Part shown: piece by piece, positions 19,429-48,086 of the stretch
Position numbering within the stretch: position 1 is the first letter of the stretch
Layout: the number at the start of each line of letters is the position of its first letter
From: Hyaloperonospora brassicae
Lineage: Eukaryota; Oomycota; Peronosporomycetes; Peronosporales; Peronosporaceae
NCBI GenBank assembly: GCA_947650285.1
Contig: CANTFL010001111.1
Coordinates: 1 to 64,000, forward strand
Direction of reading: 5' to 3'
Length of the DNA stretch: 64,000 nt
The notes under the pieces: generated by a model
Told to the model about the DNA's origin: nothing
Databases searched by the model: none
Seen by the model: only the letters and a program-made list of their open reading frames with translations
Program-made: the position numbers and the translations under genes

Positions 19429-19433
19429 GGTGT

Positions 19434-19824
19434 TGTAACGGGGCACACCCTTGCGTGAACTTAACGCAAGGGTATCGGTGCCCCGACAGACGTACACAAG
19501 GCAAGCGAGGAAGCGTAGATAAGGTAAAAGCAGAACTGTTATATTAATATAATTAAGTCTTTTAACTACTGTCTCTCTGTTTGACTTAACTTAATTATGC
19601 TAATATAACTGAGTGTATGGTGACGTCTTGTCACCACTCAATGCGCGCGGCTTGCGGCGATTGATGGGTTGATATCGTCAAGATATCAACCAATGAACAG
19701 ACTCTTTGGTCGACCCTTCAATATCACCACTTCGGGGATATTGTTTAAAGAATATTCAACTTCATATTCTTTATTGTCACTTTCCTTAAAGTGACAATTC
19801 CATGTAACGGGCTGGCCCGTTACA
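19434..19824 (-). repeat. 3' LTR of the Gypsy element
   Basis: 391 bases starting TGTAACGGGG and ending CCCGTTACA, matched by 27017-27406. It contains at least seven perfect or near-perfect hairpins, for example CCCTTGCGT/ACGCAAGGG, GTTGATAT/ATATCAAC, AGAATAT/ATATTCT, GTCACTT/AAGTGAC and GTAACGGG/CCCGTTAC. Seen from the plus strand it lies directly upstream of the antisense frame starting at 19956, so it could act as that frame's promoter. Confidence 0.95.
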
Positions 19825-19837
19825 TCACCCTCCCTAA
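19825..19837 (-). other. Polypurine tract of the Gypsy element
   Basis: On the minus strand the bases next to the 3' LTR read TTAGGGAGGGTGA. This purine run directly abuts the LTR start, as expected for the plus-strand primer of reverse transcription. Confidence 0.7.
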
Positions 19838-19955
19838 CTGATAGTCACCATGTGACTATCGAAAATTATGGCGGCCACCCGTTGGTCACCATTGAGACAG
19901 GGAGCACTTGTTGGGTCCGTTCCATTCACTTTCCGCTCGACCTCGCATAGTTAAC

Positions 19956-21559
19956 ATGTCTATGCGAAGTGACTCAAGGCACACAAAGTCTGTGCCTGTG
20001 CCAGCTTCTGCGGCAGACGATTCGTCGTCTGCTGCTCGTTCTTCGCCTGCAGCAAGAGGTGCTGCAGGTGCACGCGGTACAGCACCGCGTGCGCATGATG
20101 ACTCTGACATTGAGGTCATCTACTCTGGCGAGTCAGACGTGTCTGACTCGGGCAATGCTGCAGAGGCGTCTCGATCACCGTCGATGCCTCTATATTCGCC
20201 AAGGCCAATGCCGAACGAACGGACTCGTGAGTTGCAACACAGTCTGTTCGGCAGTTATGACGAATCTGGTGATGAGTATGTTTGCTCATCACCGCAATCA
20301 GCTCGTGCTCCTTCGCACGAGCGACTTGACGATGGTGCAACCCATCGTCATACTGACAACCTGGTACCAACAAAGGTACCACCGTGAAGCGTGATGAGCT
20401 GAATCCGTGGCGTTTGCCCGAACGGCTCATCAATAGCCTGTCTCACGAGACAAGCCAACACCATCGAATACCCTTATTCGATGCGACTGATCTTCACGGC
20501 TTTAATCCCAGCGCGAGCAACTTTCGCGCTGAGGAAGACTTTTATCTCGATGTCTTCCTTAGACATCGATGGTACAACAGCAACCAAAAGCGTGACAAAG
20601 CCTCGCTTTTGGCTGCGTGGAACGCGTTCGTCTAAAACGTAAAGACTTTTGGACGAGAAGGGTGGCTCAAGAAACTTGAGGCGACACGCCTCAGGTTCGA
20701 AAAGCGAACGCCAACCTGTGCCAGGTACCAGTTTCACTGTTTGTAGAGTGAGGCAGACATTCCTTGCCTCACATGGGGAGACCCTTGTGCGAGTTGTGTT
20801 GACAACTCGCAGCGTGCACATAGGGACGTGTATTCCCTAAGTTCGCCCTGGGGAAGGGCACACATCTCGGAGGAGATGCGTGACGCGATTGCAATCTTGC
20901 AATACGTCTACAAGCGCCTAGGGCGCGTGTTTACCGATGGGCCCGAGGACTCATCGGATGAGTCTCGTCATACCGGCGGACGAGACCTTCAACATCCATC
21001 AACAGCTGGGAGCGGGGCTCGCAGCTGTTCCAAGAGGGTGGATACCCCCGCCACTGGACGAGGTAGCTCGTCCTTGATCCTGAATCTTCACGTTGATTCA
21101 AGATACGCTCCACTAGAAAGCGTTGATCACCGTGCGCATCCACCAAAGGATGTGGTGGAGGAGGAAAGACTTCCTCCAGAACCCCAGGCCCATAATCTCT
21201 ACCCTTACTAGATGGATCGCGCAATCGATGAATTGCGCGATGACTTGAAGCACGAGCGCGACCGGCGCTACGATTTGACTGATACCGTGCGGAAGAACCG
21301 CAATAATCACGAGGCTGATCGGGCGAGAGATCGTGCCGATTATGCCACAGCGCAGCTTCAGGTCGAGCGGGGTGACCGCTCCCTATTCGGCGAGCTGGCG
21401 ACAGCTCGCGGGGAGATATCTCGGTTAAGTTCCGAGGTATCATATCTGCGCGACCAGAAGGATCGTCTGAAGCGCGAACGCAAGAACTTGATGGATGTTC
21501 TTGAACGTGGGGGCTATCTTCACCGGAAGAAGAAGGCTCGTACTGACAGTACGGCCTGA
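19956..21559 (+). pseudogene. Antisense accessory ORF of the Gypsy element (about 530 codons, broken)
   Basis: This frame runs opposite to gag-pol. It starts at ATG 19956 (MSMRSDSRHTKSVPV) and runs in one frame to 20387. It then shifts by one frame near 20384 and stays in that frame to 21559, with three stops (20633, 20744, 21209), about the same level of decay as pol. The N-terminus is Ser/Ala/Asp-rich and contains SDIEVIYSGES, which resembles a SUMO-interacting motif in acidic surroundings. The middle has a hydrophobic-aromatic block (DFYLDVFLRHRWYN) and a Cys cluster spanning the second stop, with Cys codons at 20717, 20738, 20765, 20786 and 20795 (spacing C-x6-C-x8-C-x6-C-x2-C). The C-terminal 115 codons (21212-21559) are a strongly charged coiled coil ending in a basic KKKAR tail. 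The last 630 bases overlap the chromodomain frame on the other strand. I do not know its function; a nucleic-acid-binding or Gag-like accessory role is only an inference. Confidence 0.6.
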
Positions 21560-22870
21560 GCCTCCCTAAGTAAAACGTAGGATGCGTGCGCATCTTACGT
21601 GGCAATTCGAGTGTGTATGCATTTCCCTTGCGATGCAACACTCGAAATGGCCCAATGTACCTCGGCAGTAGTTTACTAATGCCAACACTAGTGACTGCGT
21701 GTCCAGGTAAGTTTACCGTAGACAGTAGTACTAGGTCGTTAACTTTAAATGAAAGAACATTTGCTCGTCCATTCTTGTCTGCGTTCCGTTTCTGACGGTC
21801 CACCGCAATTGCGATGGAGTCCTGAACGAAACGGACTACCGCTTCTCGAGTCAGCAGGAAGCTCTCTGCTGACTCTTTGTTTTGTCTTTCAGTGCGCTTC
21901 GTGCGCACTGCTAAGAGATTGTTCTCTTCTTCAGCGAGGTTGTCTTCTTCCTCGCTGGCATAATCGTTGACGATGCTGAATATACCAGCATCGTCATCAT
22001 CATCCGAGTCAATAATAGCGTCACCGCTATTGTTGAGGTGATCTTCTTCATCGATGTCGACTTGATCGACATCGGCATCATACGTGACGACGTTAGCGTC
22101 GACACGTGATGAGCAAGAGCCAAAACGGTTTTTTCTCGAGCGAGCCCCCCCCTTATCCAAGAGTCACACTCTAGAAGGGTGGGCACACGTGGATGGCGTA
22201 GGCCATTCACGTAAAACGGTGTGTGCTGTGTGGAAGCATGCACCGAATTATTGATGGCGAATTCCACCATGGGTAGGAATTCGCTCCAACTCGGAAACGA
22301 GTGGACTTATCCTCGAATGATTTCTTCGAGGACACGTTTCGCACGTTCCGTTTGACCATCTGTTCTGGGATAGTCAGAAGTAGACATCTTCAATCGTGTT
22401 CCGAGAAATCGGAACACGATTTGCCAAAATTCCGCCGTGAACCGAGGGTCTCGGTCGGATACGAGCTCACGGGGTAACCCGTGGAGTCTAAAGACCGTGT
22501 CTAGAAAGACACGAGCACAACCTTGAGCCTTGATCGACTCAGGGACTGCAGCAATATGCACCATCTTGCTGATTCGGTCAACAAACACAAGAATACCAAT
22601 ATTCTTGTGAGCGTCTTCGGGTTTCCCGAATACGAAGTCCATTGAAACGTACTGTTAACACTCTGTCGGAACAGGCAGAGGCTGCAATGGCGCATGGGAT
22701 GAAGGACTAGGCTTCACCCGTTGACAAACCTCGCAAGCACGTATGTACTTGCGGACAAACTGATACTGGCATGGCCAGTAAAAGTCACGACTTACCGTGA
22801 GGTAAGATTCTCTACCACGATGGCCACCTTTTGGGGCATCGTGACACTCATACATGATGCGTAAACGCAA
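20931..22870 (-). pseudogene. Gypsy integrase and chromodomain
   Basis: Continues pol. The zinc-binding H2C2 part is at 22655-22870 (HDAPKGGHRGRESY, then CEVCQRV). The catalytic core is at 22307-22642: VFVDRISKMVHIA holds the first Asp, SDRDPRFTAEFW the second and DGQTERAKRVLEE the Glu. The third part begins near 22270 (VEFAINNSVHASTQ). The 409-codon frame 20931-22160 carries the GPF module (RYIGPFRVLHR), a Pro/Ser/Arg-rich linker, and a chromodomain (RFLVERILNQRE, then YLVQWRGYPPSWNS) ending at 20931. Chromodomains target integration to marked chromatin. The Trp usually found in the SWEP motif is Cys here (SCEP). Frameshifts separate the three parts. Confidence 0.9.
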
Positions 22871-25840
22871 ATCATGATGAGCGGGTACGACGACACGAGG
22901 CGTGTCGTCGGCAACCCTGTATAGTACAGCAATCCGTTGCGTGTACTATAACGATCCGATGAGGATCGGTACAAAGCTGGTAAATCTCTCATGGATTTAC
23001 TGGATGGATTCACCAGATGATCCATCAATCGCAGAAGATCCTTATCTTCCGCGTATGCCTTTCGTACGTCGTCAAGTAAACTTGACGACGAGACACTGGC
23101 TCTCAGTGTCGCAACAGTGGGCTTATCCTCACTGTTGGATTGTTCGTACGGCTCGAAATCGGGCCGGCGATAAAGCGCATCAGCGACGACATTGAGTCGT
23201 CCTGGTTTATACTTCACGGAGAAGTTATACTCCGCGAAGAAAGACAGCCACCTCGCCGTCCTTTGCGAGAGGTGTGGGCTGTTTACGGCCGTGCGTAGTG
23301 ACGCATGGTCCGTATAGACAACAAACGGTCGATCTAACAAGAGATAGAAGCGAAACTTAGCCGGCGTGTACTTCATGGCAAGGAGTTTCTTGTCATGCAC
23401 TGGGTAATTACGCTCAGCTGCTTGCAGCTGACGCGACTGATAACAGATGACGCGCTCCGCGCCATCTGCATCGAACTGTATTAACGCACAGCCGATTGCA
23501 AAATCGCTGGCGTCACAGACCACATGAAATGGTCTGTCCTGATCTGGAATCGCCAAGATCGGCGATTGCATCAAGCTTTGCTTAATACCCTCAAACTAAC
23601 GCTGGCGATCCAGCGTTCCATGACTACTTGACATTTTTCTTGAGCAAGCAAGAAAGATGAACAGTCTTCTCGGCGTAGTTGCGCGAGTACTTGTGCAAGT
23701 ACGCCGCTAGACCAAGAGACTTCCCTAGTCCCTTGACATCGACTGGCACTGGTCATTCGGTGATAGCCTTGATCTTTTCGGGATCAGGGCGTACGCCGTG
23801 TTTACCCACGATGCACCCAAGAAGTGGTATTTCGCTAGACGCGAATATACACTTCTTGAGGTTGGCGTACAACTTATGCTTGCGCACAAGTTGAAGCACT
23901 TGACGAAGGTGAGTTGTGTGAACTTCAACGTCCGTCTTTCTGTCCATAGCCCGACAATGGGCGAACACATCGTCGAAGTAACTCGGTGCGAAGTCTCGCA
24001 CCGGTCTCAACAGATTTGTGACACATCTGTTGAATGTTGCAGGGGAATTGCTCAGCCCCTGTGGCATCACTAGCCACTCCCACAGCATCCCGCTGGGGGT
24101 ACTCACTGCTGTGAACGGGACGTCCCGTTCACGCATCAGGATCTGATAAAATCCATCCATCAGATCCATGGACAAAAAGATGGTACTCTTCGACATACCA
24201 TCTATGATTACGTCCTTCCTCGGTATCGGCGTCTGAGCCGGTACCGTTGCAGCTTTCAATTTGTTGAATGCGTGCACTATCCGCCACCCTCCTGTGGCCT
24301 TTCGCACACAGAAGGTCGGAGAGCTGTGAGGGGATGTTGATTCCCTCACATGGCCCGCTGCTAAGCGATCGGCAAAGAACTTGTCGATCGCTAGTACTTA
24401 TTCACGAGGCAGTGGCCACTGCTTCATGACACAGTACTTCGAGCCCGGTTTGAGCTCAATCTCGTGTCAAGTGCCTTTGTTCTTAGGCAACTCGCAAGGC
24501 ACGGATTCAGGGAACACATCCTTGAATTCGATCAAATCCTTATACAAAGGATTTGCCTGAAGTGACTCCCAGGATTGAGACGCGTATCGCTCAATCCGAG
24601 TCTTCTCATCGAGGACAGTTTCGTCCATCGATGAACTGCTGAGAACCCTCTCGGTCTCAGTAAACACCGTTGCCGACCGAATATCGACCACATATTCATC
24701 CTCTGTGACGAGTATGCAGATCTGCTTGACTTTGCCACTACGCAGATCACGCAAGAACCGTTTCGGTTCTAGCGTTGGCAACTGAGTTATCTCCGAAGTT
24801 AACTTCGGAGGCACAATCAGGTCAAGCGTATAAGCGCCTACGCTTGATCCACCATTAACCAAGACGTTCAACGTCTCGGTTACTTCCTGGGAACTTTTTT
24901 CCACAGGTCGATGAAGGCCTAATCCTTCAGCAAGTGACTCTTGAGGAATTCCTTCCTCAAGTACGTGGGGACTTATTCCCTCGACGTCTTCTGACTGTGG
25001 CTGTGCAACCACAGTCAGGGACTGATCCTATACGGTCGACTCTCCGGTCGACCTAGGATTTCTATGTTGCCCTTTGGGGGCAACAGGTTTCTTCTGTCTA
25101 AGATGCTGCCCGCTAGGCATGCATCCATGTCCCGGTCTACTCGACTTATTCGAGTGGTGGACCTTCGACGCAGCCTGTACTTCTGTACAGCCGCCGGGAG
25201 CTTGCTCCACAGTGTAGTGATCAACTACACTGTGATCTTGTGCAGTCGTGCTAACGACCGAATCGCAAGTGAGGCCATCGCACTCACTCGCAGAACATCC
25301 ACACGCTTATGAACGCTCCAAGATGTTCATCAGATGGTCATCTGATGAACAAGTGGCAGGCATCTTCACGGATTGATGCTGTTAGCTCACCCTTGGCTCG
25401 TACTTTCTGAGCCAAGGTAATCCCAGGATGACATCAAATTTGTCATCCAGATCTAGTACGATGAATCCATCATCGTACTGTTCGCCCTCTAAAGTGTAGT
25501 GGAATCCGACTACATGTTTCTTAACGGCAATCGATGCGCCTGTTGCAAGGCGCACCGTCATCCTCGTGAGGAGAATGTCGCGCTCAACGAACTTGAGTCT
25601 ACGACTCTCTAGTGACTGGCGTAGAACAAAGTTGTTCGACGCCCCACAGTCTACTAGGGCACGAAGCGACAAACCATTTTTCGCTTCCAACTTCAAGGTG
25701 ATGAGCGAAACGTCATCACTAGGTGCAGAGAGACACAATGATTGTGTATCTAGAGCAACTTTCGTCAAGAGATTTGCAAATTCTCTTGAGGTTGATGGAT
25801 CAGTAGGGCGCTCCACCCCTACTGACCCCGACCATTTTTT
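22792..25840 (-). pseudogene. Gypsy protease, reverse transcriptase and RNase H
   Basis: The pol frame begins just after the minus-one slippery site. Protease (25382-25816) has VDCGASNNF, where DSGA is usual, and later VILGLPWL. A linker runs to FKDVFPESVPCELP (about 24500). RT (23753-24349) shows FLSMDLMDGFYQI, MPQGLSNSPATFNR and a YFDD catalytic box (FDDVF). RNase H (22792-23574) shows VCDASDFAIGCAL and VYTDHASLR. Frame 1 is kept from protease to RT but interrupted by in-frame stops at 25382, 25028, about 24467 and near 24403. More stops and a frameshift fall between RT and RNase H. Several stops look like former Arg, Gln or Trp codons changed by a single transition. Confidence 0.92.
25800..25840 (-). 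promoter_or_regulatory. Candidate minus-one ribosomal frameshift signal at the gag-pol junction
   Basis: On the minus strand the gag frame reads TCA AAA AAT at 25842-25834, so A AAA AAT forms an X-XXY-YYZ slippery heptamer (25840-25834). After an 8-nt spacer there is a stem of TCAGTAGGG (25825-25817) and CCCTACTGA (25808-25800) with an 8-nt loop. The gag stop lies inside the stem, and the protease frame is minus one relative to gag. This is the textbook layout. The caveat is that hairpins are everywhere in this element. Confidence 0.6.
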
Positions 25841-26972
25841 GATGGTCCGTCTCGCTGTTGCGGCTTCGCAACAGCGCTGGACCCACGCCCGTTGCCCTTT
25901 CTGGTAATTGGTCGTCCATTTCGCTCAATACTGTTCGGTACTGGGCGTGGAGCACTACACTCGTATGCGTAGTGCCCTAACTTCTGACAGCGATTGCACC
26001 TCTGCAATCGCTTGTTGTTTGAAGAGCGAGGTCTCTCGCTCTCAACATAGCAGAGGTCCATTGGTTCTGGACCTCCGATCTCTTGTCGTCTCGGTTGACG
26101 GTAAGATTTTGAGCTAACATGAGCCTGTCTCATGCTAAAGTCTTACTGTTCCGCGGCTGATATCGCTTCTTCAAGCGTATTCAGCTCAAGGCGGAACAGG
26201 TGGCTCCTGACGGGCCCTTCTGCGAGCCCTTGCATGAACACCGTAATCAACGTGTGTTCATGAACTGGGTTAGCAGTTATACTACTCGCTAGGAGTCGTA
26301 TATGTTGTGCGTAAGCGTGCACATCACGCTTACCCTGCTTGAGTTTCAGGAGCTCAGAACGAGCCCTGAACTCAACTCGTGGCGGCTCAAACGTTTGTCT
26401 GAGCCGGGACTTGAAGTCATCTAGCGACCTAAACACATTTAGGTCGCTACTCTCGAGTCCCAGGGACCAAGTTTTGGCACGCCCTGCCAAGTGGGTCTGA
26501 GCAAATGTGAGTTTCATTTGCTCATCTTCGACGCGACGAGCCCTTAAGGCTCTGTCGAGTTCGACAAACCACAGTAACAGGGAGTCTTCCGGGACTCCAC
26601 TGTACTTGGAGATGTCAACCTTCATGACCTTGGGACGACGCGCATGTGCCGTCCCGCCCACAGCAGCATGGAATTGCTGCTGTCTCAACAGCTCTGTCTG
26701 TTGAGCACCGAGTTCTCTCAACTGCTCGGCCTGTTGAGAGCCTTGCTGGTGAAGCAAGGCTCCTTTCTCCCTTTCGGGACAAGTTCATTTTGGATGAACT
26801 TGGCTATAGCGGCATGTTGTTGGTATCTGTCTAGAGACTCCAACATGGCGCTAATGGCGAACTCGCCTACGGTAGAACTCATTCGTTCTACCGCACCCCA
26901 TTCGATGTCACTCAAATGGGTAAACTCTTCACGCGTGGCGTGAAAGGTCTCTTCATCATCCAACATGTTCAT
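25819..26972 (-). pseudogene. Gypsy gag with CCHC zinc knuckle
   Basis: The N-terminal part starts at 26972 (MNMLDDEETFHATREEF). One frameshift near 26720-26757 leads into a 204-codon frame with the Retrotrans_gag core (SGVPEDSLLLWFVELDRAL, FAQTHLAGRAKTWSL, FKSRLRQTFEPPR, LKLKQGKRDVHAYA). A single TAA at 26143 separates this from an in-frame continuation to 25819 that carries CNRCQKLGHYAYEC, a perfect C-x2-C-x4-H-x4-C knuckle, followed by an Arg/Gly-rich tail. The protein would coat and package the element RNA. The downstream pol frame is reached by a candidate frameshift signal. Confidence 0.9.
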
Positions 26973-27001
26973 GTTGAATTCTGTGGTCCTTGGAAGGACT
27001 A

Positions 27002-27014
27002 CAAAGTGCTACCA
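27002..27014 (-). other. Primer binding site of the Gypsy element
   Basis: Two bases inside the 5' LTR the minus strand reads TGGTAGCACTTTG. It begins with TGG, as a site pairing with the CCA end of a tRNA should. The matching tRNA 3' end would be CAAAGTGCTACCA. I cannot name the tRNA from this window. Confidence 0.6.
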
Positions 27015-27016
27015 GG

Positions 27017-27406
27017 TGTAACGGGGCACACCCTTGCGTGAACTTAACGCAAGGGTATCGGTACCCCGACAGACGTACACAAGGCAAGCGAGGAAGCGTA
27101 GGTAAGGTAAAAGCAGAACTGTTATATTAATATAATTAAGTCTTTAACCACTGTCTCTCTGTTTGACTTAACTTATTTATGCTAATATAACTGAGTGTAT
27201 GGTGACGTCTCGTCACCACTCATTGCGCGCGTCTTGCGGCGATTGATGGGTTGATATCATCAAGATATCAACCAACGAACAGACTCTTTGGTCGACCCTT
27301 CAATATCACCACTTCGGTGATATTGTTTAAAGAATATTCAACTTCATATTCTTTATTGTCACTTTCCTTAAAGTGACAATTCCATGTAACGGGCTGCCCC
27401 GTTACG
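27017..27406 (-). repeat. 5' LTR of the Gypsy element
   Basis: 390 bases, about 97% identical by eye to 19434-19824. Its final base is G where the partner has A. It keeps longer perfect stems at two places where the other LTR has a mismatch: CAATATCACC/GGTGATATTG and GGTGACG/CGTCACC. It is followed directly by the GGTGT duplication. Confidence 0.95.
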
Positions 27407-27411
27407 GGTGT

Positions 27412-29228: not shown

Positions 29229-31933
29229 ATGCCGGCGCTCGAAGTCTTTGGGCGCCGCAGCCGCGTCGTCAGCAGCGACGACCTGTACTGCCCCGCACTG
29301 TTTCTGCTCTTCTACCACGTACCGCTCGTGCTCGTGTGCGTGCTGTACGTGACTGTATGGCGCAGCTGCTCGTCCACGGCGCTGGACAAGACGGGGCTGC
29401 CGCTGTGGTATCTGCTGGGCGCGACGCCGCTGCTGTTCTTCCGCGGGTGTACCTACCTCATGATCATGCACGTGTCGATGCGAGGGACGATCGTGCACCA
29501 CGAGCGCCGCGTGCTGATGCCACGAATGCTGCAAGTGCACACGCTCTGGTCGCTGGTGCTGGCAGCGTACGGACTGGTGGGGCTCGGGAGCTGGTACGCG
29601 TGCGACATGTGTCGTCCAGATGCTCGTTATGTATTGGTACGAGTGCAGTCGATGGGTGGTGTGCATTCATTCATTCGTGTGTTTGTAGTGTTAGCGTTGA
29701 TCGTTTAAATGTTTTTAGGCTGTACCTCTATGTATGATGTACCTCTATGTATGCTGTACCCACTTGTGATGCGGGACTGACTATGAGTGAATGGGTGTGC
29801 AGGCAGTTGGAGGGCTCGTGCTGGTGGAAGTGGGCTTTACGTTCTCGCTCGGAGTGTGTATCATGAGCGACGTGCGGCCGGAAGACGCGATCGTTCGAGG
29901 AAAACCGCCGTCAGTGACGAGTGCATTCGACTCGCACGGTAACGCTCTTGACCCCGAACGTCAGTCGCTGTTGGATGGTACGTGGGGCCTGGACAGCTGG
30001 GCCCTTGCCGATGTGATGCTAATAGAATGTTGGTGCGTATGTGTTCGCTGCAGAGGTAGACCACGCCGTGCGAACCTCGGACGTGTACGTGCCACACAGT
30101 CAGAGGCTGTGGAAGCAACGGTGCACACGTTGCTGCATGTGTCTGCGCTGCTTTACGTGCAACTTGTTTGGTGGAGCTGGCACTCGGCATGACAGCATGT
30201 CCTTGGTGGCAAAAGTGTTCTCGAGGTTGTTTTACGGCAGTCCAGACCTTGTGATATCGGACATTGTAGCTGGCTTTGTGCTCCTGGCAGCTGTTCAGGC
30301 GTACGAAGATCATCAAGAGGTGATGGCTACGTCACCGCATCGAAAAAGCGAAGAAGGAGAGGAGACGCTTGGTCAAATGCGTGCTAGAATTCGCGCTAGG
30401 CCGGACAAGATGAACTTCGACTTGCTTGACGACCGAGCTGTGGGCAGTGGAAAATCTGCTGCAGCGACGACGTCAGCGAGTAGTGCGTCGATGGTATCGA
30501 CGACGTCAGAGCGTTTGGCGATGAACGGTAGCAGTGCAGACCGGTTCGTCTCCATCGACATTCCTTCCTCTCTTGAATCCCAGCAACAACCGCGCGATGA
30601 GTCCGGAAAGCCGATCAGGCCCTTTTACTACCATCCGACAGATCCTCACCTCAATGACGTGGAGCTGACGGATACGTTGAAGGAGTTGGCGCACTTTTCG
30701 AAGTATGCTATTGGCATCTATGGTTGGATGCTGTTTGTATGGTCTCATCCATGGAGCGGCACGTTCCGACTGGCGTTCTCGTTTCTTCGTCGCAACTTGG
30801 GGTGGGTACACGGTGACAACTGGTTTCACCTCAGCCAGACGGCACTGCAGCTGGAAACAAAGGTGCACAGCGACGACATCGTGTACGCGAGTTTCCGCAA
30901 TTCGGTGTACCAGCCAGCATTTGCAGTGATGCTGGACCACGCGCGTAAGGAGGTTGTCATCGCCATCCGTGGCACGTTATCGTTGGAAGACTGCCTCACC
31001 GACGCCATCGCATACGGCATGTCGACGAACGACGTGTCTGACCGGTGGGGATGTGATGGTATTGGCGAGTATGCCCACCAGGGCTTTCTCACGTGTGCCG
31101 AGTCAGTGTACTTGGAGCTCAACCGTCTCAGGGTCCTTGAAATGCTCTTTGATGAGAAATCCACTGCGGCCATTGCCACCAACGAGGTCAACGCATGCGA
31201 TCGTGGTGCGTATCGTGACTACGGCCTCGTGGTTACCGGTCACTCGCTTGGAGCAGGCACGGCAGTTCTGCTAGCCGTTTTGCTTCGCTCCAAGTACCCG
31301 CAACTTCGTTGCTTTGCGTATAGCCCTCCGGGTTGCACAATGTCTCCCGGGCTTGCTGCTCGTTGTTCCGCCTTCACCGTCTCCGTCGTTGTGGGTGACG
31401 ACATCATTGCTCGGTCGTCGATCACATCAGCTGAGATACTGCGGGATAACGTTCTCGACTTGATCGGGAGGAGCAAGGTGAGCAAAGCGACTATCCTTCG
31501 ACAAGTCGTTTCTTGGCGGAACCCAGGTGAGCTACTTCACGGAAGCTTGGACGAGCACTCTGCATTCGACGATGAAGGAACAGGCAGCGATGTGGCCAGA
31601 GTACGCTCGCCGTTCATAGCGCATTTGTCCAGTTATCGCACGATGCTGCAACGCATTCAAGAATCCGAACCGATTCATGAGATGACCATCCCTGGACGTG
31701 TAGTGCATCTCAAGCGAGTCGTAGACGCCAAAGAGGTGGCTGGGTGCTGGGTTTGTTGCCGTCCTGGAGGCGGCGGTGTATGCTGCACCGCACGCACGCA
31801 TTATCGGTTCGGTTGGGCTGTTGAGGGTCAGTTTAAACAGATTCGCATTGGACGAACAATGCTGGACGATCACTTCCCGGACAAAGTACATTACGTGCTC
31901 CAAGACTGCGTGGAGCGCTTGCGTGGGAACTAG
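29229..31933 (+). CDS. sn-1-specific diacylglycerol lipase (class 3 lipase), three exons
   Basis: Exons are inferred at 29229-29636, 29803-29977 and 30054-31933, giving about 820 residues. The second intron has a GTACGT donor and a CTGCAG acceptor. The first donor could instead lie six bases earlier. The N-terminus has four hydrophobic segments (for example LFYHVPLVLVCVLYV and GLVLVEVGFTFSLGVCI), as in DAGL proteins. The lipase domain has VVIAIRGTLSLEDCLTD, the nucleophile elbow TGHSLGAG with Ser about residue 592, and CFAYSPPGC. GDDII further on is a candidate for the catalytic Asp. Such lipases cleave the sn-1 acyl chain of diacylglycerol at membranes, releasing 2-monoacylglycerol and a fatty acid. 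A Ser/Thr-rich linker (about residues 300-360) separates membrane and catalytic parts. It converges with the next gene, 141 bases away. Confidence 0.88.
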
Positions 31934-32074
31934 CACGAAAACGGAAATGAGTATCTGTAAGGTCGGATCGCACAAGTTCGGGCTTGCTCGTTGTAGCACG
32001 CACTGGCAACGAGGGCCGACTCGGTGGCACAGTCCGCTGATTGAAGTATGCGGCTTTCTTCTTCGGGTTACCGT

Positions 32075-34615
32075 TCATCGTGGCGTACGGCCGCACACGA
32101 CGCATTGGAGGACGCCGGCTGCATTAGTTTTGGTGCAAAGGCTGCATGTCCACGTGGTTGCCAACGATTGTGCTGATGCCGATTTGGACTTCATAGATGC
32201 TGTTGGTGCGTGCGGCGACACTGAAGGGGCAGTAGAAGCGTACACTGTCTCGTCACTGCTGCTACGGCCGAAAAGGTAATGTCCTGTCGTGCTGGTTTCT
32301 TGGTGTCGAGTATGTGGCTCGAGCTCGGATTTTTGCTGGATCTGCGCAGGCGTATCCAGTTCTGAGGACGTTGAATACAGTGGCGGATACGACATGGCCG
32401 ATGGCAATAGCGGAGGAGGGGGTGTTGCGGTTGCAGCGCTGAGTTTGTCCTCTAAAATGCGGATCCTGCGCAATGCTGCCTTCATTGCTGCCTCCATGTC
32501 TTCTTGTGCACCATTCGACAATGCGTTGCCTTCCCCCGAATCACTCACTGCGTACAATGGTGATGCGGGATTTCCCGCCGGCGATGGTGGAAATGGAGCT
32601 CCACGAAAGTAGTATGAGCTCCACAGTGTTACTTGGCGCAACACAGACGGTATATCTGGCAGCAACGCTGTTGTGCTGCTAGCTCGGTAGAACGGGTTCA
32701 CGAATCGATCGTCCTGGAAAACGGACGCATAGAGCGAGGGAGTCCGGTCACGCACGCCCCAGGCGCTGCGCTCGCGCTCACAATTACCTAAGAATGTGCC
32801 GTATCTGCCCGAGAACACCGCGTCCGCCAATGTCTCGAGCATGCGTTCATTGAACTCGAAGTATGTGGGAAACAAGCGAAACAGTTGCCACACGCAGTCC
32901 AGGAACTGGATGAAAATCGGCGCTTGCTGGTCGTCGTCGTCTTCACTTTTGCCAGGAGCGACGCGGTCCTGGAACTTGTGACCAGCACGAACCCATTCTT
33001 TCTCAATTACCTCGAGAAAACCTCGTCGTGTGCGGTAATGCGCGTCAACGAGCAGCTGCCCGAGACTACAGAGCTGAGCTGTCCGGTCCCACCCATCGCT
33101 ACAGTGCACGACCACGGTCGTGGCTTGGACCGCGAGGGCGTGCGCGACTTGCAGCGCCCCGCTCAGGACGCGACGCACGTGAGAAAGCCATTTGGTGTCT
33201 TCAACACGCGTACCCCACGACAGATCAGTCGACTCAGTGTTGTTCGATGAAGCCACGAATTCGCCCAGACTACGCACGGCCTCGATACTTTCGCGCATGG
33301 CGTGGATGTTTCCGATATTGAGGAACGACACATGTGCATGTGCTAGATTCCCGCTTTCCGTGCCGCCTCCCGTCAAGTTGTTCACCCGCGCATTCAACTC
33401 TGGACGACAATCTGCAATCCAGATCTTGCGAGCCCGTGTGCCGGAATACAGGGACGGTGAACCAGGTGAAGCGAGAGCAATGTAGAGCAGGTACTGTTCG
33501 TCTGCCGGGTTCTGCGTATGCAGAATACCGCGCTTTGGTTGCGCACATCGCCACAAGGAAGCCCCGTTGCGCGCATGAACGTAGCTGCAAATGGGCAATC
33601 GCCCCTTGGATCGAAACGAAGCCACTGCTTTAACGTGTGCGTCGCTCGCAGCTGCAGGCACAACAATCTGCCGAGGATACGTGGGGCACATGGTGAACGT
33701 CGCATTGAGCTCCGTCACGCGCAATGCACAGCTCGAGTCGCTTCCAAGAGCGACACCCATTCGGGCGAAGTCCGCGTACAGATCGTACAGCGCATGTCCT
33801 TGTGCATCCTGCTCTGTCGGTCGCGTAATGGACGAGAAGGCAAAGAAACTCATCGGCGAGTCCACAAACACGTGTCGATTCAGCGCGGGCAACAGCTTCA
33901 CCACGTCGCCTCCAAGCACCCACGACCTCAAGTCTTTGAACTTCACTTCCAGTCTCGTAAACATCCCCGCATCACTTCCTCCTCCTCCTCCGTTGCCCAT
34001 CGCCATACCACTCTGACCAATTGCACTGCCAAAAGTGCTCGTAAACGTACTTCCAAAAGCACTACTTAGGGCAGTAGTAGCCAGAGCACTACTTCCAACA
34101 GTCGTGTACGACGACGTCATTGCTGTCGGTGCAACCGGCGCGTACGATAACTTGGCCACTGCAGCACGTGGCATGCCGTGCATTGCCATGTCCACGAGCC
34201 GCTTACACGCGCCATCGAGCGCGTTCGTCCGACTGCTCTGCGGCGCAAACTGGAGGCGGAACGACGTGATGTAGAGCGTCCCGGGCACCTCACGGACGGC
34301 CAGCGCCGTCGGGAAGACAAACGACACGCACGCGATTGTCGCAACGACAGTCTCGCCTGGAAAAGGGGGCACCGTGCGACGCATTGCACCGGACAGAGCT
34401 ACAACGGGCGGCGTCGGCAGCGACGCAGTCGACGCGGAATGGGCCGAAGAGGGCGAGAGCGACGGCGTGGACGGCGGCGACAGCTTCGGGGCGAGCGCCA
34501 TGACGCGGGCCATGCGCGCGTGGTGCGGGCAGTGGCCGCTCGAGACGGTGGCCGCAGAGGCACAGCGCACGCCCGTGTGGGTCATGGCCGAGCACGTGTC
34601 GCCTCCGAACGACAT
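32075..34615 (-). CDS. Myotubularin-family phosphoinositide 3-phosphatase with RanBP2-type zinc finger
   Basis: A single exon of about 846 residues. I chose the ATG at 34615 (MSFGGDTCSAMTHTG) because the 112 codons upstream are low-complexity Pro/Thr/Asn sequence derived from a TTGGTACGGT-like repeat and look like leader. Domains in order: a small Cys/His cluster (residues about 8-33, C-x9-C-x10-C-x2-H), a GRAM/PH-like part with GTLYITSFRLQF, the myotubularin phosphatase with the C-x5-R loop VHCSDGWDRT (Cys about 505), a coiled coil (AAMKAALRRIRILEDKL), and a C-terminal W-x-C-x2-C-x10-C-x2-C finger ending VVCGRTPR. Active myotubularins dephosphorylate PtdIns3P and PtdIns(3,5)P2 on endosomes. 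Cys, both Asp and Arg are present, so this should be active. The terminal finger suggests ubiquitin or RNA binding, which is inference. Confidence 0.88.
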   Translation of the reverse strand: MSFGGDTCSAMTHTGVRCASAATVSSGHCPHHARMARVMALAPKLSPPSTPSLSPSSAHSASTASLPTPPVVALSGAMRRTVPPFPGETVVATIACVSFVFPTALAVREVPGTLYITSFRLQFAPQSSRTNALDGACKRLVDMAMHGMPRAAVAKLSYAPVAPTAMTSSYTTVGSSALATTALSSAFGSTFTSTFGSAIGQSGMAMGNGGGGGSDAGMFTRLEVKFKDLRSWVLGGDVVKLLPALNRHVFVDSPMSFFAFSSITRPTEQDAQGHALYDLYADFARMGVALGSDSSCALRVTELNATFTMCPTYPRQIVVPAAASDAHVKAVASFRSKGRLPICSYVHARNGASLWRCAQPKRGILHTQNPADEQYLLYIALASPGSPSLYSGTRARKIWIADCRPELNARVNNLTGGGTESGNLAHAHVSFLNIGNIHAMRESIEAVRSLGEFVASSNNTESTDLSWGTRVEDTKWLSHVRRVLSGALQVAHALAVQATTVVVHCSDGWDRTAQLCSLGQLLVDAHYRTRRGFLEVIEKEWVRAGHKFQDRVAPGKSEDDDDQQAPIFIQFLDCVWQLFRLFPTYFEFNERMLETLADAVFSGRYGTFLGNCERERSAWGVRDRTPSLYASVFQDDRFVNPFYRASSTTALLPDIPSVLRQVTLWSSYYFRGAPFPPSPAGNPASPLYAVSDSGEGNALSNGAQEDMEAAMKAALRRIRILEDKLSAATATPPPPLLPSAMSYPPLYSTSSELDTPAQIQQKSELEPHTRHQETSTTGHYLFGRSSSDETVYASTAPSVSPHAPTASMKSKSASAQSLATTWTCSLCTKTNAAGVLQCVVCGRTPR

Positions 34616-35165
34616 GGCGGACGCACGTGCCGAGCGTGGCGTGGCGTGTCGATTGCGTAGTGATGGGGGCGAACGGGCGAGTTGTAGGTCGTAGGTTGAC
34701 GTGGTGGACAATATTGGATGATTTGGTACGGTTTGGTACGGTTTGCTATCGTGTGTGGTTGGCTTTTGAGACCATATGCGACACATTGGCTGCGCGAAAC
34801 ATGTGGTTTGCGTTGATGCCGTTTGCGACCAATTGGGCGTGCGATTTGGTACAGTTTGAGATTGTAGCCTCGTCTTAGGTACGGGTCGGGTTGGGTTGGG
34901 ATCTATTTTGGTGGTATGCGGTGGATGGACGCATCGCAGTAAACACGCCATGGGGTAGTATAGTACAGGGACTGATCAGAGGATTGCAAAGGCACAGCTG
35001 AATGAAATACGACACAATGCAAACGCCCGGCACAAACCGGTTCAGGCAAATTGCGAAAAACGCGGACAGGTAGTATCATCGTGTGTCGTTTCGAGGCGAG
35101 TAATGATAGACACAGTGTTGTGGTCGACGCTTCTCGCGTCTACCTCTGCGTGCTCGTCATTGTGC
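34616..35165. other. Intergenic region between OGG1 and the myotubularin gene
   Basis: Serves as the 5' region of the myotubularin gene and the 3' region of OGG1 (both minus). Between about 34715 and 34870 the words TTTGGTACGG and TTTGG recur imperfectly. No further gene seen. Confidence 0.5.
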
Positions 35166-36665
35166 TCACATCGGCCCAACCGGTGGCTTTCGTGTCTTGT
35201 TCTTGGGGCTGGCCGGCACTCGAGGCGCACTCGTGAGCTTGCGTTTGACTTGCTGCCGTATCGGCTTGTGTACAAGATCAGTCTTGAAAGCGGAGAGATC
35301 GCCTGCGAACAAGACGCTGTGAGCCCAGCCAGCTTGCGGCGCGAAACGCGTTCGGAATAGATCGCCCACCATGCGGTACACAGTCGGCGTGATACTCTTC
35401 CGATCGCTGAGCGTCGCATCCAGCTCTCGACATGCGATCTGCCACACATGCGTGTCAACGGGAATGGCTTCCATCCTTTCCAGCGAAAAAAGCGCCACGC
35501 AGTCTGCGACTTTTCTTCCAACACCTGCAAATACCATCAGGTCCTCCTGATACGCATGATACGATGTCATGTGGTCCTGCAGCGCGTCGCTCGGTCCCTC
35601 GCGGCTCTTTCTCGCCTTCCGTTTCGTTCCCTCGTTCACACGACCAGCCTTTCCATCTCGAATATCGTCAAGATACGACGGTCCTCCCAGTTGCTGCAGC
35701 TGTTTTGCGGTCTTCACGACAAACGCCGCGCGGTAGCCAAACCCAAGCGCCCGCAGCACCGACTCTTCGCACTTGGCAGCCAGCGTCTCCACCGCAGGAA
35801 ACGCATACAGCAGTTGCTCGTCTCCGTCTTCTCCTTTGTAGATCAAGTCACCATACGTGGCTCGCAGTTTATCCACCATGGTTTGAATGCGAGCAATGTT
35901 GTTGTTCGATGAGCAGATGAAGGCAAACAGACACTCGACTGGGTCTTGCCGCACGATCCGCAGTCCCCGCAGTCGCGAGATACTCCCTGACATGCGATCA
36001 GCTACTGCTGTCCATCGCCTGTACAGCTGCTCTTCGTCCACCTACAGATGGAAAAGAGAAACACAACAAACAACAACCACATCAACAACCACAGCATCAG
36101 CACAGTTCACTGCTACAGGTCTCTCACTCTCCTTCTTCTTCTTCTTCTTCTTCTTCCTCTTCCACTACCATCATAGCAGGACGTACATCCAGTCGAAAGT
36201 AGTGCGAGAGCTCTGCTGCACTGTCTTTGACCGGTACTGTACACACAGCACCACAGTAGTCAGCAGAGCACGTGCCCCTCCCGCGCTTCACTGACAGTGC
36301 CCAGTGGGCCACGCACCGTCTGCCGGCCAGAGGCAGCGAAAGTGGACCACGTGGTCCCGTTCCTGTAGTGCAAAGACGCGACGCTGGACAACGCCGAGCC
36401 ACGTGGCCGCGTGTCGCGGGTGTCTCCGCCAGGCGAACACCTGTCCCGACTCCAACGTGAGGGCGCACGAGAGCGCGCGCGTGCTGCAGAGCGGCGTCCA
36501 CTCGGCAGTCGCACGTGTCTCCGCTTGGACTCGCGCGTGTTCAGCCGATGCTGCAGTCGGTGGCGCACAAGAGACGCGGGCGCTGGTCGAGGAAAAGAGA
36601 CCGTCGCGAGTCGCGCGTTTGGTGCTGTGCGCGGCGGCATAGGGCCGTCGCGTGGAGCGCCGCAT
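35166..36665 (-). CDS. OGG1: 8-oxoguanine DNA glycosylase OGG1, three exons
   Basis: Exons 36665-36317, 36236-36187 and 36041-35166 join in frame to about 424 residues. Introns are 80 bp (GTGCGT...TACAG) and 145 bp (GTACGT...TGTAG). The N-terminal OGG domain shows LTLESGQVFAWRRH, and the 50-base exon adds SHYFRLD, which continues with VDEEQLYRRW. The HhH-GPD part has FAGVGRKVADCVALF and IPVDTHVW. The catalytic Lys is about residue 310 and the Asp about 329, with the same 19-residue spacing as Lys249/Asp268 of human OGG1. The enzyme removes 8-oxoguanine opposite cytosine and nicks the strand in base-excision repair, in nucleus or mitochondria. An insertion of about 25 basic residues (KAGRVNEGTKRKARKSREG region) and a basic Pro-rich tail make it longer than the human protein (345). 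Confidence 0.9.
36042..36186 (-). other. OGG1 intron 2 with a GAA trinucleotide run
   Basis: On the sense strand the intron carries about nine GAA/GGA triplets (plus-strand TTC at about 36130-36162), followed by a stretch of TGTTGTTGATG-like words and the acceptor TCTGTAG. Reading through would add a poly-Glu tail and a stop, so splicing is required for the C-terminal catalytic domain. Confidence 0.6.
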
Positions 36666-37256
36666 GGCAGAGACTGGATAGACGACGGCAACGGTCGGTC
36701 GGGCAATGATGTATATGCAGTATAGATGATTGATGTCGGGATAAGGTGAATGCTTCGGCACAATAGCGCAGGTGGGCGAGGCTTGGCGAAACAGGATAAG
36801 AAGAGACTTAGTGTGGATTGGCTTCTATACGACGCATGCTACAATGTGTGTACACACCACACCCAGATACAAAGTACGAGCCTAATCACGCGACGTAAGG
36901 TGGCAGCTCAGTAAACGCGGCTACGGTCGCTCTTGCAAAAACAGAAAAAGAGCGTGTCGTGGTATGGTGTAAACTATCAGTGTAAGCACTTGTCATGCCA
37001 CACACGGGTCTTGACTAAACCTGACAAACACGACAGCGTCGTCTTTCATGTGTCCATCCGAGTGAGTGCTTATGCCTGTCAAGAGCACCTGCACTTCGTA
37101 TGACACGACGCAAGAGGACCATTTCGAAAAAGGACCCCTAAAGAGGACAATTTCTGGAATGGCAATCGTTAAATGGACAATTTGACAGCATCTCTGTACG
37201 TGATCCTCATGCTACAATATCATTTTCGCGTCTCGTACAGCTCGAATCGCCATTCG
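36666..37256. other. Intergenic region upstream of OGG1
   Basis: Contains the OGG1 promoter and the 3' end of the cap methyltransferase (both minus). AGGAC-AATTT words occur three times at about 37115-37185 (plus strand). I see no gene or RNA. Confidence 0.5.
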
Positions 37257-38441
37257 TTAGTAGGACTTTTTGAACGCTAGTACCTGGTAAAGCCCAGCTA
37301 TTTCCCACTCGGCATCCGAGATAGAGCCGCGGACGTTCGTCACGTGCATCTTTTCCAGCAGCGTGCGATTGTAGTCTTGGTCCTTGCGTTGGTGAATAAA
37401 CTGGTGGAAGTTCTGCTTCAGCAGGAGCTCAAAGCCGTGTCCCCGCAGGAGCTTTGCAACCAGATCGTCCGGTACCAGGTACTCTGGCAGGTCGACGGCC
37501 TGGCCGCCGCCACCGTCCGCGTCATCATCCACGCGATCACGCAGCGTGAAGTTGTAGCGCAGACCAAACGAGCCTTCCGGTGCTGCATTGGGCCCTGACA
37601 ACTGCGCACGCGTGTGCGCGTCAAAGCGGATGCAGCACACCTCACGGTCCTTCTCGTCCACGATGCTCACGTCCGGTTTGCGACCAGTTCGCTCGTCGGC
37701 CTCTTGCTCTGGTGGCCGCAGCCCCTGGTAGTACTTCATCAGCAGTTTGTTCGGGTCGACGGTCGTTGCAATCAGCACACCGCCATCTGCAAGCAGCTCA
37801 TGCACTGTCGAGAAGAAGCGGTTGGCGCGCTCGGCGTCGCCAAACATGTAGTGGAGTGAGAACTGCACCGACACGATGCTAAAGCTGCCAGCTGCGGAGC
37901 CCGGTAGCGGCACGGCGTCGTGCCAGCCGTCTGTCTCGTTCCAGCAGTGCATCTCGTCGCGCAGCAAGTCGACGACGCCGAGATCCCCTTGAATAAAGCG
38001 CGCATCCGTCTTCTTGCGGTGCCGATCCGCGCCGCCTTTTCCGCCGCGCGCAAACGAAGTGTACCGCTCGACGGCATCCTCGAGCGACTTTTGGGCAATG
38101 TCGACCCCCACGTAGAGCGCGAGGTTGCGCTTGGTCCACTTCATGAGGTCGCCGCCTTTGCCGCACGCCAAGTCCAGCACGCAGTCCCCGTCCCGTTGCG
38201 AGTACTCGTTGATCAGAATGGACTTCACCCAGTTGTTCAGCGCCCGCATGTGGAACAGCAGACTGTCGGCGCGGTCACTCTGGGCCCGGCGCTGCAGCTG
38301 GTTGTAAAACGCGGCGGCCGCGTCGTGGTCCTTCTCGTGGCGCCCATCGTCCGGTCCGTCCGTCACCATAGCGCTGTGCGAGCGCTTGCCACCACTTGAC
38401 AGCGGTCGGTCCGGGCCCGACACCAAATTGGAGATCTGCAT
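37257..38441 (-). CDS. mRNA cap guanine-N7 methyltransferase (Abd1/RNMT type)
   Basis: An open frame of 394 residues from the ATG at 38441. The class I methyltransferase core is clear: LNNWVKSILINEY, then SAM-binding VLDLACGKGGDLMKW (residues 88-102), YVGVDIAQKSLEDAV, VSVQFSLHYMF (the mRNA-capping substrate pocket), GGVLIATTVDPNKL and a C-terminal FELLLKQNFHQFI. It methylates N7 of the cap guanine using S-adenosylmethionine, in the nucleus. The frame remains open upstream of this ATG to at least 38529. A 55-bp intron (38584-38530, GTACTT...CTGCAG) would join it in phase to the WW-domain frame upstream, giving one protein of about 607 residues. The first Met is therefore uncertain. Confidence 0.9.
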   Translation of the reverse strand: MQISNLVSGPDRPLSSGGKRSHSAMVTDGPDDGRHEKDHDAAAAFYNQLQRRAQSDRADSLLFHMRALNNWVKSILINEYSQRDGDCVLDLACGKGGDLMKWTKRNLALYVGVDIAQKSLEDAVERYTSFARGGKGGADRHRKKTDARFIQGDLGVVDLLRDEMHCWNETDGWHDAVPLPGSAAGSFSIVSVQFSLHYMFGDAERANRFFSTVHELLADGGVLIATTVDPNKLLMKYYQGLRPPEQEADERTGRKPDVSIVDEKDREVCCIRFDAHTRAQLSGPNAAPEGSFGLRYNFTLRDRVDDDADGGGGQAVDLPEYLVPDDLVAKLLRGHGFELLLKQNFHQFIHQRKDQDYNRTLLEKMHVTNVRGSISDAEWEIAGLYQVLAFKKSY

Positions 38442-38535
38442 GGCCCTCGACGTCGGGACCGTCGACGGCCGTCGCGCCTCATTGCTGTCGTCGTCTTCTG
38501 CTGTACAGCACCGCGTTAGTCGATTGCTACTGCAG

Positions 38536-39135: not shown

Positions 39136-39164
39136 GATGAGACAGACAGCTAGACAGACGCCAA

Positions 39165-39330
39165 AGAGTCGGGCGAGTGGGCGAGTGGGCGACTGGTCGG
39201 ACAGTTCGTCGATGGGTCCATTGGTCGATTGTTCGATTGATCGGATGATGATCGATCGATCGGGGGTCGATTGGTCGAACAGTTTGCTGATCGGTTGATT
39301 GGACGATTGATTGGCCGACTCGTGACGACG
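39165..39330. repeat. Imperfect short-period repeat upstream of the WW gene
   Basis: Words such as GATTGGTCGA, GATTGTTCGATT, GATCGATCGATC and GATTGGACGATT follow each other without a strict period. The block starts about 30 bases upstream of the WW start codon, so it lies in its promoter or leader. Confidence 0.7.
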
Positions 39331-46159: not shown

Positions 46160-46261
46160 ATTTGGGATGATGCTTCAGCTTCGAGCCACCACGAGGACCG
46201 GTTTCACTCATCGCATGTAAGCCAGCGGTATGGCGGTGGCAAATAGAGATTCGACGTCAGC

Positions 46262-48007: not shown

Positions 48008-48019
48008 TTGAAAGGCGAA

Positions 48020-48044
48020 GTGGTCGGTCGGTCGGTCGGTCGGT
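48020..48044. repeat. GGTC tetranucleotide run in the leader of the HA-repeat gene
   Basis: Five to six GGTC units on the plus strand just upstream of the chosen start codon. Confidence 0.8.
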
Positions 48045-48086
48045 TTTGTGGAGTTGGGATGTTCAATTGGTGTTGTGGCATGGGAG

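What the first reader, a model, noticed from the sequence alone, without database searches (positions are those of the whole stretch)
19434..27406. A Gypsy retrotransposon saturated with short perfect inverted repeats
Seen directly: almost every 30-40 bases the element contains a short palindrome with a small loop. In about 1 kb (19840-20815) I traced thirteen perfect stems of 8 or 9 bp with loops of 11 nt or less. Examples are GCAGACGA/TCGTCTGC at 20013-20032, CCTGCAGCA/TGCTGCAGG at 20046-20068, GCACGCGGT/ACCGCGTGC at 20070-20092, GAGTCAGAC/GTCTGACTC at 20130-20149 and CATCGAATA/TATTCGATG near 20464. By chance about 11 loop sizes times 4^-8 gives roughly 0.2 per kb. The pattern continues through gag (AGCCTTGCT/AGCAAGGCT), pol (CACAGTGTAGT/ACTACACTGTG at 25208-25234) and both LTRs. 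It is not apparent in the Copia elements or the cellular genes of this window. Coding constraint must be met at the same time, so codon choice seems to be shaped by pairing. Possible causes: repeated quasi-palindrome correction by template switching during reverse transcription; selection for genome-scale ordered RNA structure, as described for some RNA viruses; or production of small double-stranded RNAs.
Basis: partly seen in the sequence, partly recalled or inferred. Interest (0 to 1): 0.9.

Follow-up and report, generated by a model that had tools for sequence, protein, structure and literature searches.

The report
Retrotransposon families saturated with tiny hairpins
A Ty3/Gypsy retrotransposon in what is likely an oomycete genome carries a perfect short hairpin about every 75 to 100 bases, protein-coding parts included, some fifty times above chance, and two related families carry hairpins of other sizes; selection likely keeps them, perhaps because they would hold each strand folded on itself.

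Summary
Perfect stems of 8 bp or more (loop 2-12) number 80 in the 7,973-bp element against 11 in the other 56 kb. The window copy is decayed: 29 other copies carry 12.2-14.0 stems/kb, this one 9.1 over the same stretch. One open pol frame has 47 stems against 1.3 after codon shuffling.

Two related Gypsy families differ. Family B has 2.3-5.8 stems/kb. Family C has no 8-bp stems but a three- to fourfold excess of mini-hairpins, modally 13 nt. Distant Gypsy elements, 30 other reverse-transcriptase loci and host genes lack the long stems.

The excess is confined to short-loop inverted repeats and is similar on both strands, with no clear G-U preference. Silent variants shared between copies avoid stems (24 of 161, against 33% expected). 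Stems shared within B keep 22 of 24 third positions, against 43 of 100 in flanks.

I favour selection for self-folding single strands. Palindrome conversion by template switching, proposed for nematomorph mitochondria, is the main rival. Function is untested.

The parts
19434..27406 (-). Complete but decayed Ty3/Gypsy element (family A) with 80 perfect stems of 8-13 bp
   Evidence: Stem scan; LTRs and target duplication; Pfam gag, RT, RNase H, Tf2-type SH3, chromodomain
27017..27406 (-). 5' LTR, 7 stems of 8 bp or more
   Evidence: Local alignment of the two LTRs, 378 of 389 identical; count
19434..19824 (-). 3' LTR, 4 stems of 8 bp or more
   Evidence: last base read from the TGTAAC start
19429..19433 (.). 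Target-site duplication GGTGT, left copy
   Evidence: Sequence
27407..27411 (.). Target-site duplication GGTGT, right copy
   Evidence: Sequence
26143..26757 (-). Gag fragment (Retrotrans_gag, Ty3_capsid)
   Evidence: Pfam
23753..24349 (-). Reverse transcriptase fragment (RVT_1)
   Evidence: Pfam E 1.1e-26
22792..23574 (-). RNase H fragment
   Evidence: Pfam
20931..22160 (-). Integrase C-terminal part with Tf2-1-type SH3 domain and chromodomain
   Evidence: Pfam
22392..22421 (.). Example stem, 13 bp, loop 4
25324..25351 (.). Example stem, 13 bp, loop 2
20129..20150 (.).

Best explanation
This is a decayed copy of a retrotransposon family whose sequence, coding parts included, is packed with short Watson-Crick hairpins that are likely maintained by selection for local self-folding of the element's single strands. 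Shown by the calls: the hairpins exceed codon-preserving controls many-fold, occur in gag, pol and LTRs, are present in 29 other copies, and are avoided by silent variants that have spread between copies. Inferred: most were built by silent or nearly silent point changes, each family settling on its own hairpin size. Inferred and untested: because the pairing is Watson-Crick and similarly stable on both strands, the thing selected would be that both the sense RNA and its complement (antisense transcript or first-strand cDNA) fold locally, which would compact the RNA and hinder sense-antisense annealing into long double strands, the substrate of Dicer-type silencing; no stem exceeds 13 bp. The host genome encodes Argonaute-like and paired RNase III domains.
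For: Excess over codon shuffles: 47 against 1.27. Folding energy of 150-nt pieces against shuffles that keep protein, codons and dinucleotides: z -21.6 sense and -17.8 antisense for L007, -7.1 and -7.1 for L061 (B), -4.7 and -10.8 for L062 (C); the five other RT elements range from -2.0 to 0.4 and the four host genes from -2.1 to 2.7. Excess only for inverted repeats with loops up to about 20 nt, none for direct repeats. Purifying selection: shared silent variants lie in stems in 24 of 161 cases and private silent ones in 48 of 225, against 33% of opportunities (p 2e-7 and 2e-4), while private amino-acid-changing variants, mostly post-insertion decay, show none (92 of 300 against 32%, p 0.66). 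In B, 5 stems of L061 coincide with L064 stems against 0.74 expected, with arms 74 of 78 identical and third positions 22 of 24, against 43 of 100 in flanks; one pair there has changed on both sides. In L010 an 8-bp stem absent from 29 of 29 other copies differs from them by five silent changes spread over both arms (silence read by me from the gag frame). Centre phases favour wobble freedom. Host: three Piwi-domain places, six RNase III places including two tandem pairs.
Against: No clear G-U preference: 19 stems with G-U against 12 with A-C controls in L007, and first non-WC pair outside 19 GT against 9 AC in A (p 0.09), 1 against 5 in B, 18 against 18 in C; a sense-RNA constraint should tolerate G-U. 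The private-versus-shared silent test alone is weak (p 0.11, 0.057, 0.040 by inclusion threshold). Private silent variants are depleted too, which I read as selection before insertion but cannot prove. In L061 imperfect stems are not in excess (3 against 2.6), as a copying mechanism would give, and arms of its newer stems carry extra codon-position 1+2 changes (43 of 157 against 192 of 1193). Stem positions in A and B do not coincide (2 against 2.95), so no site is conserved across families. Spacing is random. The silencing-evasion purpose rests on no expression or small-RNA data; the RdRP search did not complete.
Confidence: 0.45

Rival explanations
1. Palindrome conversion: the element's reverse transcriptase (or host repair) repeatedly switches template within a nascent hairpin, turns imperfect into perfect inverted repeats and keeps the arms identical; protein selection only filters the outcome. 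No function of the hairpins is needed, and each family's hairpin size would reflect its own enzyme.
For: Watson-Crick perfection, abrupt ends and strand symmetry. In L061 stems are nearly binary, perfect or absent (7 perfect, 3 one-mismatch against 2.6 expected). Some newer L061 stems differ from L064 mostly in one arm (5 to 1, 4 to 0, 7 to 1, 8 to 3); summed asymmetry 29 against 20.5, P 0.055, and extra amino-acid-position changes in the arms. Same phase bias as in nematomorph mitochondrial palindromes, for which this mechanism was proposed (PMC6649704, abstract, passages and first part of the Results seen).
Against: The other five arm-asymmetry comparisons give P 0.20-0.92. Family A has a strong excess of one-mismatch stems. 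Between L007 and L010 single-sided changes outnumber paired ones 23 to 6, so correction is not efficient. Unbiased conversion lets arms co-diverge at the neutral rate, yet the five shared B stems are conserved (third positions 22 of 24). No excess of direct repeats. Few recent gains among 35 copies.
Confidence: 0.3
2. Dispersed packaging or assembly signals: hairpins in the sense RNA are bound by Gag, and each family's hairpin size matches its own Gag.
For: Family-specific sizes (L061 19-23 nt in 21 of 25 stems; L007 mean 24.6; C modal 13); hairpins throughout gag, pol and LTRs; stems in L007 slightly favour G-U over A-C.
Against: No sequence motif in loops or tetraloops, random spacing, structure as strong on the antisense strand and stronger there in C.
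Confidence: 0.12
3. The hairpins feed or mimic host small RNAs: spans near 21 nt (B) and 24-25 nt (A) would match the 21- and 25-nt classes reported in Phytophthora.
For: Span means; small-RNA classes of 21 and 25/26 nt, the latter mainly from transposable elements (PMC3804510, passages seen).
Against: Family C's 13-nt hairpins fit no class; A spans range from 18 to 41; stems of at most 13 bp are short for Dicer (recalled); no small-RNA data here.
Confidence: 0.05
4. Chance, composition, or an assembly artefact.
For: None found.
Against: Codon- and dinucleotide-preserving controls; same stems in 29 separately placed copies; other sequences of like G+C lack them.
Confidence: 0.01

Closest known systems
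Coding palindromes in mitochondrial genes of Nematomorpha (PMC6649704)
   Same: Perfect inverted repeats inside functional coding sequence, depletion of the phase that ties wobble to wobble, gains and losses between relatives.
   Different: There: mitochondrial, 110 repeats of at least 15 bp (mean 43) in four genomes, authors report no excess of imperfect repeats. Here: nuclear LTR retrotransposons, stems of at most 13 bp, about one per 75 bp in well-preserved copies, imperfect stems in excess in family A, family-specific sizes.
Genome-scale ordered RNA structure of RNA viruses (recalled; listing only)
   Same: Folding energy beyond sequence-preserving shuffles along the whole coding sequence.
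   Different: Here it takes the form of short-range perfect Watson-Crick hairpins and is equally present on the antisense strand.
Structured genomic RNA of yeast Ty3 and Ty1 (PMC11381356: abstract and one section seen)
   Same: Ty3/Gypsy genomic RNA with structured regions dispersed over coding sequence.
   Different: That paper describes a mosaic with stable regions making up at most about 30% of the RNA and an A-rich genome; no hairpin saturation is described in what I read.
Perfect inverted repeats across 118,019 genomes (PMC13155455, passages seen)
   Same: Same kind of object (arms of at least 10 bp, spacer up to 8).
   Different: Eukaryotes there average 1.91 IR bp/kb and the highest whole genome has 180.33; by my reading of those parameters this element has 96 and copies L007, L002 and L030 have 118-129, spacer included.

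Membership tests
Ty3/Gypsy LTR retrotransposon (chromovirus-like) | LTRs starting TG and ending CA, short target duplication | tested here: met
   LTRs 378 of 389 identical, TGTAAC...GTTACA ends (one terminal base changed in the 5' LTR), GGTGT duplication
Ty3/Gypsy LTR retrotransposon (chromovirus-like) | Domain order gag, protease, RT, RNase H, integrase | tested here: met
   Copy L007, frames as they stand: Retrotrans_gag; then RVP_2 86-188, RVT_1 540-705, RNase H 769-899, Integrase_H2C2 1017-1074. The rve core was found in L061 above its cut-off and in L062 below it; the L007 stretch ends before it
Ty3/Gypsy LTR retrotransposon (chromovirus-like) | Chromodomain after integrase | tested here: met
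   Window copy 20931-22160: Chromo E 1.2e-9
Nematomorph-type coding palindromes | Perfect inverted repeats inside translated coding sequence | tested here: met
   47 stems in an open pol frame; translation itself not testable
Nematomorph-type coding palindromes | Depletion of wobble-to-wobble phase | tested here: met
   9 of 59 against 27 and 23; p 0.011 against equal thirds
Nematomorph-type coding palindromes | Binary identity: no excess of imperfect repeats | tested here: not met
   Family A: 23 and 22 one-mismatch stems against 3.5 expected; family B copy L061 does fit (3 against 2.6) but is small
Nematomorph-type coding palindromes | Repeats of at least 15 bp | tested here: not met
   Longest stem 13 bp in the element and in 29 copies
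Genome-scale ordered RNA structure | Folding energy below sequence-preserving controls along the coding sequence | tested here: met
   z -21.6 (A), -7.1 (B), -4.7 (C) on the sense strand
Genome-scale ordered RNA structure | Structure formed by the genomic RNA strand in particular | tested here: inconclusive
   Antisense z equal or stronger in B and C, slightly weaker in A; no clear G-U preference
Quasi-palindrome template-switch products | One arm rewritten as a tract from the other | tested here: inconclusive
   P 0.055 for L061 against L064; 0.89, 0.40, 0.78, 0.20 and 0.92 in the other five comparisons

The most novel reading that the evidence does not exclude
A clade of Ty3/Gypsy elements carries a second, structural code laid over its genes: each family keeps hairpins of its own fixed size (about 13, 21 or 24 nt) spread over the element and written by codon choice, so that both its RNA and its complementary strand fold on themselves, as a genome-wide defence against pairing and silencing.
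Probability: 0.3. Interest if true: 0.9.

Novelty: new variant of a known kind. Interest (0 to 1): 0.8.

Why it matters
If selection keeps the hairpins, a mobile element has bent its codon choice, and in places its amino acids, to a structural rule along its whole length, and comparison of families A, B and C in one genome shows that rule changing. That would give a natural system for asking how retroelement RNA and cDNA structure affects packaging, reverse transcription and silencing. If a copying mechanism makes them, the element shows a reverse transcriptase or repair process that writes palindromes into genes. Either way it offers a nuclear, many-copy counterpart to the unexplained coding palindromes of nematomorph mitochondria, where copies at many ages make the process datable.

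Tried and rejected
Direct repeats as part of the pattern: no excess. Regular spacing, as a lattice of coat protein might need: linkers have sd 34.5 against 33.5 for random placement. Sequence-specific hairpins: loops, tetraloops and triloops show no shared motif, though C closes on pyrimidine-purine pairs (73 of 104) and L061 on G-C (13 of 22). Known RNA families: none at Rfam gathering thresholds in the element or in L007, L061, L062. Stem positions shared between A and B: no more than chance. Divergence of arms against loops in C copies: set aside, because requiring perfect arms in the reference lowers arm divergence by itself. One search treated gag as non-coding; one search showed an open gag frame, and one search replaces it. 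One search, a threshold check, carries the same error and is not used. Relatives elsewhere: viral contigs gave none, genome contigs one distant locus, L075, with 2 stems of 8 bp or more in 5.4 kb, phage records none.

Controls that go partly against a clean picture: one other RT locus, L050, has a 1.86-fold excess of mini-hairpins and L031 1.38-fold; the myotubularin-like gene has 12 six-bp stems against 5.2.
Full report
WHAT WAS CHECKED. A scan of the whole window for maximal perfect stems with loops of 2-12 nt finds 80 of 8 bp or more in 19434-27406 and 11 in the other 56.0 kb. The 11 outside stems equal the chance rate of about 0.2/kb.

THE ELEMENT. It lies on the minus strand between GGTGT duplications, with LTRs at 19434-19824 and 27017-27406, 378 of 389 bases identical. 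Pfam finds gag, RT, RNase H, a Tf2-1-type SH3 domain and a chromodomain in its broken frames. A better-preserved copy, L007, has a gag frame and a pol frame that overlap by about 100 nt in a -1 relation, with protease, RT, RNase H and integrase zinc-binding domains in that order. The closest reverse transcriptases listed are from Peronospora matthiolae (up to 82% identity), then Peronospora effusa and several Phytophthora (the best 120 of 1,179 were shown), so the host is likely a peronosporalean oomycete. The genome held is 100.56 Mb in 898 contigs.

COPIES. A search of the genome scored 40 of 1,973 candidates; all 40 span the whole 1.5-kb query at 95-100% identity, and 30 were fetched, the window's own among them. 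The 29 others carry 12.2-14.0 stems/kb over 4.5 kb (mean 13.4) against 9.1 for the window copy. The window copy is thus a decayed one. Five further A copies, chosen from the RVT_1 list and more diverged or shorter, have 6.4-11.8/kb.

OTHER FAMILIES. Fourteen RT stretches taken by hand from the RVT_1 list (150 shown) gave, besides those five A copies, four of family B (L061, L064, L065, L073: 5.8, 3.2, 2.3, 2.7 stems/kb), two of family C (L062, L071: none) and three of distant Gypsy lines at 25-27% identity (0.5, 0, 0). A, B and C are 54-60% identical in protein. Thirty other RT loci have 21 stems in 111 kb, 0.19/kb. In the genome search B has 40 listed places at 83-100% identity to its RT query, and all 150 listed for C are at 89-100% (lists capped at 150 scored).

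CONTROLS. In pol of L007, 47 stems of 8 bp or more stand against 1.27 in codon shuffles (40 shuffles, maximum 5), and in B copy L061 22 against 0.8. With shuffles that keep protein, codon counts and dinucleotides, energies of 150-nt pieces are far below control in A, B and C, on both strands: L007 z -21.6/-17.8, L068 -11.9/-12.6, L061 -7.1/-7.1, L064 -2.2/-4.3, L062 -4.7/-10.8, L071 -5.3/-6.7. Five other elements range from -2.0 to 0.4 and four host genes from -2.1 to 2.7. The excess is confined to inverted repeats with loops up to about 20 nt; direct repeats show none.

HAIRPIN SIZE. Family C has 74 stems of exactly 5 bp with loops 3-10 against 20 expected and none of 8 bp or more. Its excess peaks at a total span of 13 nt: 24 against 2.2 for 5-bp stems and 12 against 0.6 for 6-bp stems. 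Hairpins of 5 bp or more spanning 11-17 nt are 3.1-4.0 times expectation in 6 of 6 C copies; A and B copies have 1.6-2.0; the controls L069, L063, L034, L075 and two host genes have 0.6-1.0, but L031 has 1.38 and L050 1.86. In L061, 21 of 25 stems of 8 bp or more (loops 0-24) span 19-23 nt. In L007, 66 such stems average 24.6 nt, sd 3.6. That each family has its own size rests on one or a few sequences per family.

UPKEEP. Using stems present in at least 2 of 30 copies, shared silent variants (2-15 copies) lie in stems in 24 of 161 cases and private silent ones in 48 of 225, against 33% of silent opportunities; private amino-acid-changing variants do so in 92 of 300, as expected from 32%. The last group is mainly decay after insertion and shows that stems are not mutational cold spots. 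The direct private-versus-shared silent comparison is borderline: p 0.11, 0.057 and 0.040 at thresholds of 2, 3 and 5 copies. Variants in the gag-pol overlap were left out. Within B, L061 and L064 are 69% identical in DNA, yet 5 stems coincide (0.74 expected from shifts) and their arms are 74 of 78 identical. Fourteen other L061 stems are absent from L064, with arms 125 of 212 identical. Stems defined in A and in B do not coincide (2 against 2.95). Stems are thus long-lived inside a family and renewed between families.

HOW STEMS ARISE. Among 35 A copies the gain list shows three stems in L010 and one site in L012 that differs by one or a few bases from others; one of the L010 stems could be compared with only one other copy. 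One L010 stem differs from the other 29 copies by five changes spread over both arms, all silent in the gag frame by my reading; the direction of change is not known. In L061 the arms of stems not shared with L064 carry more changes at codon positions 1 and 2 than the rest (43 of 157 against 192 of 1193, p 0.001). Three of four other comparisons agree (p 0.001-0.014) and L007 against L062 does not (p 0.95). So stems can cost amino acids. One-armed rewriting is suggested in a few L061 stems but not established (P 0.055; five other comparisons P 0.20-0.92).

STRAND. Hairpins are Watson-Crick with abrupt ends. G-U is not clearly preferred over A-C: 19 against 12 stems in L007; first non-WC pair outside 19/9 in A, 1/5 in B, 18/18 in C. 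This is unlike a constraint on sense RNA alone. It fits either a need for both strands to fold or a copying mechanism.

LITERATURE. Ten full-text searches were made; none of their listings named a hairpin-saturated LTR retrotransposon. The nearest case is coding palindromes in nematomorph mitochondria (PMC6649704; abstract, passages and first part of the Results seen), where the authors favour conversion by template switching because imperfect repeats are missing. Here imperfect stems are in excess in family A (23 against 3.5) but not in L061. Small RNAs of 21 and 25/26 nt, the latter mainly from transposable elements, are reported for Phytophthora (PMC3804510, passages seen). The present genome has three Piwi-domain places and six RNase III-domain places; the RdRP search did not complete.

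JUDGEMENT. The pattern is real and several families deep. Selection on self-folding explains the silent-site constraint, the conserved third positions, the imperfect class in A and the lack of arm co-divergence. Conversion explains perfection, symmetry and the binary state of L061. Both may act, conversion making stems and selection keeping them. The purpose, hindering strand annealing and silencing, is inference.

Noticed in passing
L007 1077-1179: gag and pol frames overlap by about 100 nt in a -1 relation, suggesting a frameshift for pol in family A.
   Followed up: partly
19825-19834 and about 27002-27014: Polypurine-like AGGGAGGGTGA just inside the 3' LTR and a primer-site-like TGGTAGCACTTTG just inside the 5' LTR (names by analogy; the tRNA was not identified).
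   Followed up: no
L062: Family C mini-hairpins close on pyrimidine-purine pairs (C-G 40, T-A 33 of 104), while L061 hairpins close on G-C (13 of 22): family-specific closing-pair habits.
   Followed up: partly
L050: One other reverse-transcriptase locus has a 1.86-fold excess of short hairpins without long stems.
   Followed up: no
L007 spans: Spans of family A stems peak at 20, 23 and 26 nt (7, 15 and 10 of 66), a period of three that may reflect codon phase.
   Followed up: no
L075: A contig filed under a Bacillota genome bin encodes a Gypsy-like reverse transcriptase 34% identical to the window's: likely eukaryotic contamination.
   Followed up: partly
30041-48106: Cellular genes without the pattern: class 3 lipase, myotubularin-like phosphatase, Foie-gras domain protein, helicase-associated-domain protein.
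   Followed up: partly
G000 contig C871:95352-104330: Two Piwi-domain genes lie about 8 kb apart on opposite strands with identical scores, perhaps a recent duplication.
   Followed up: no
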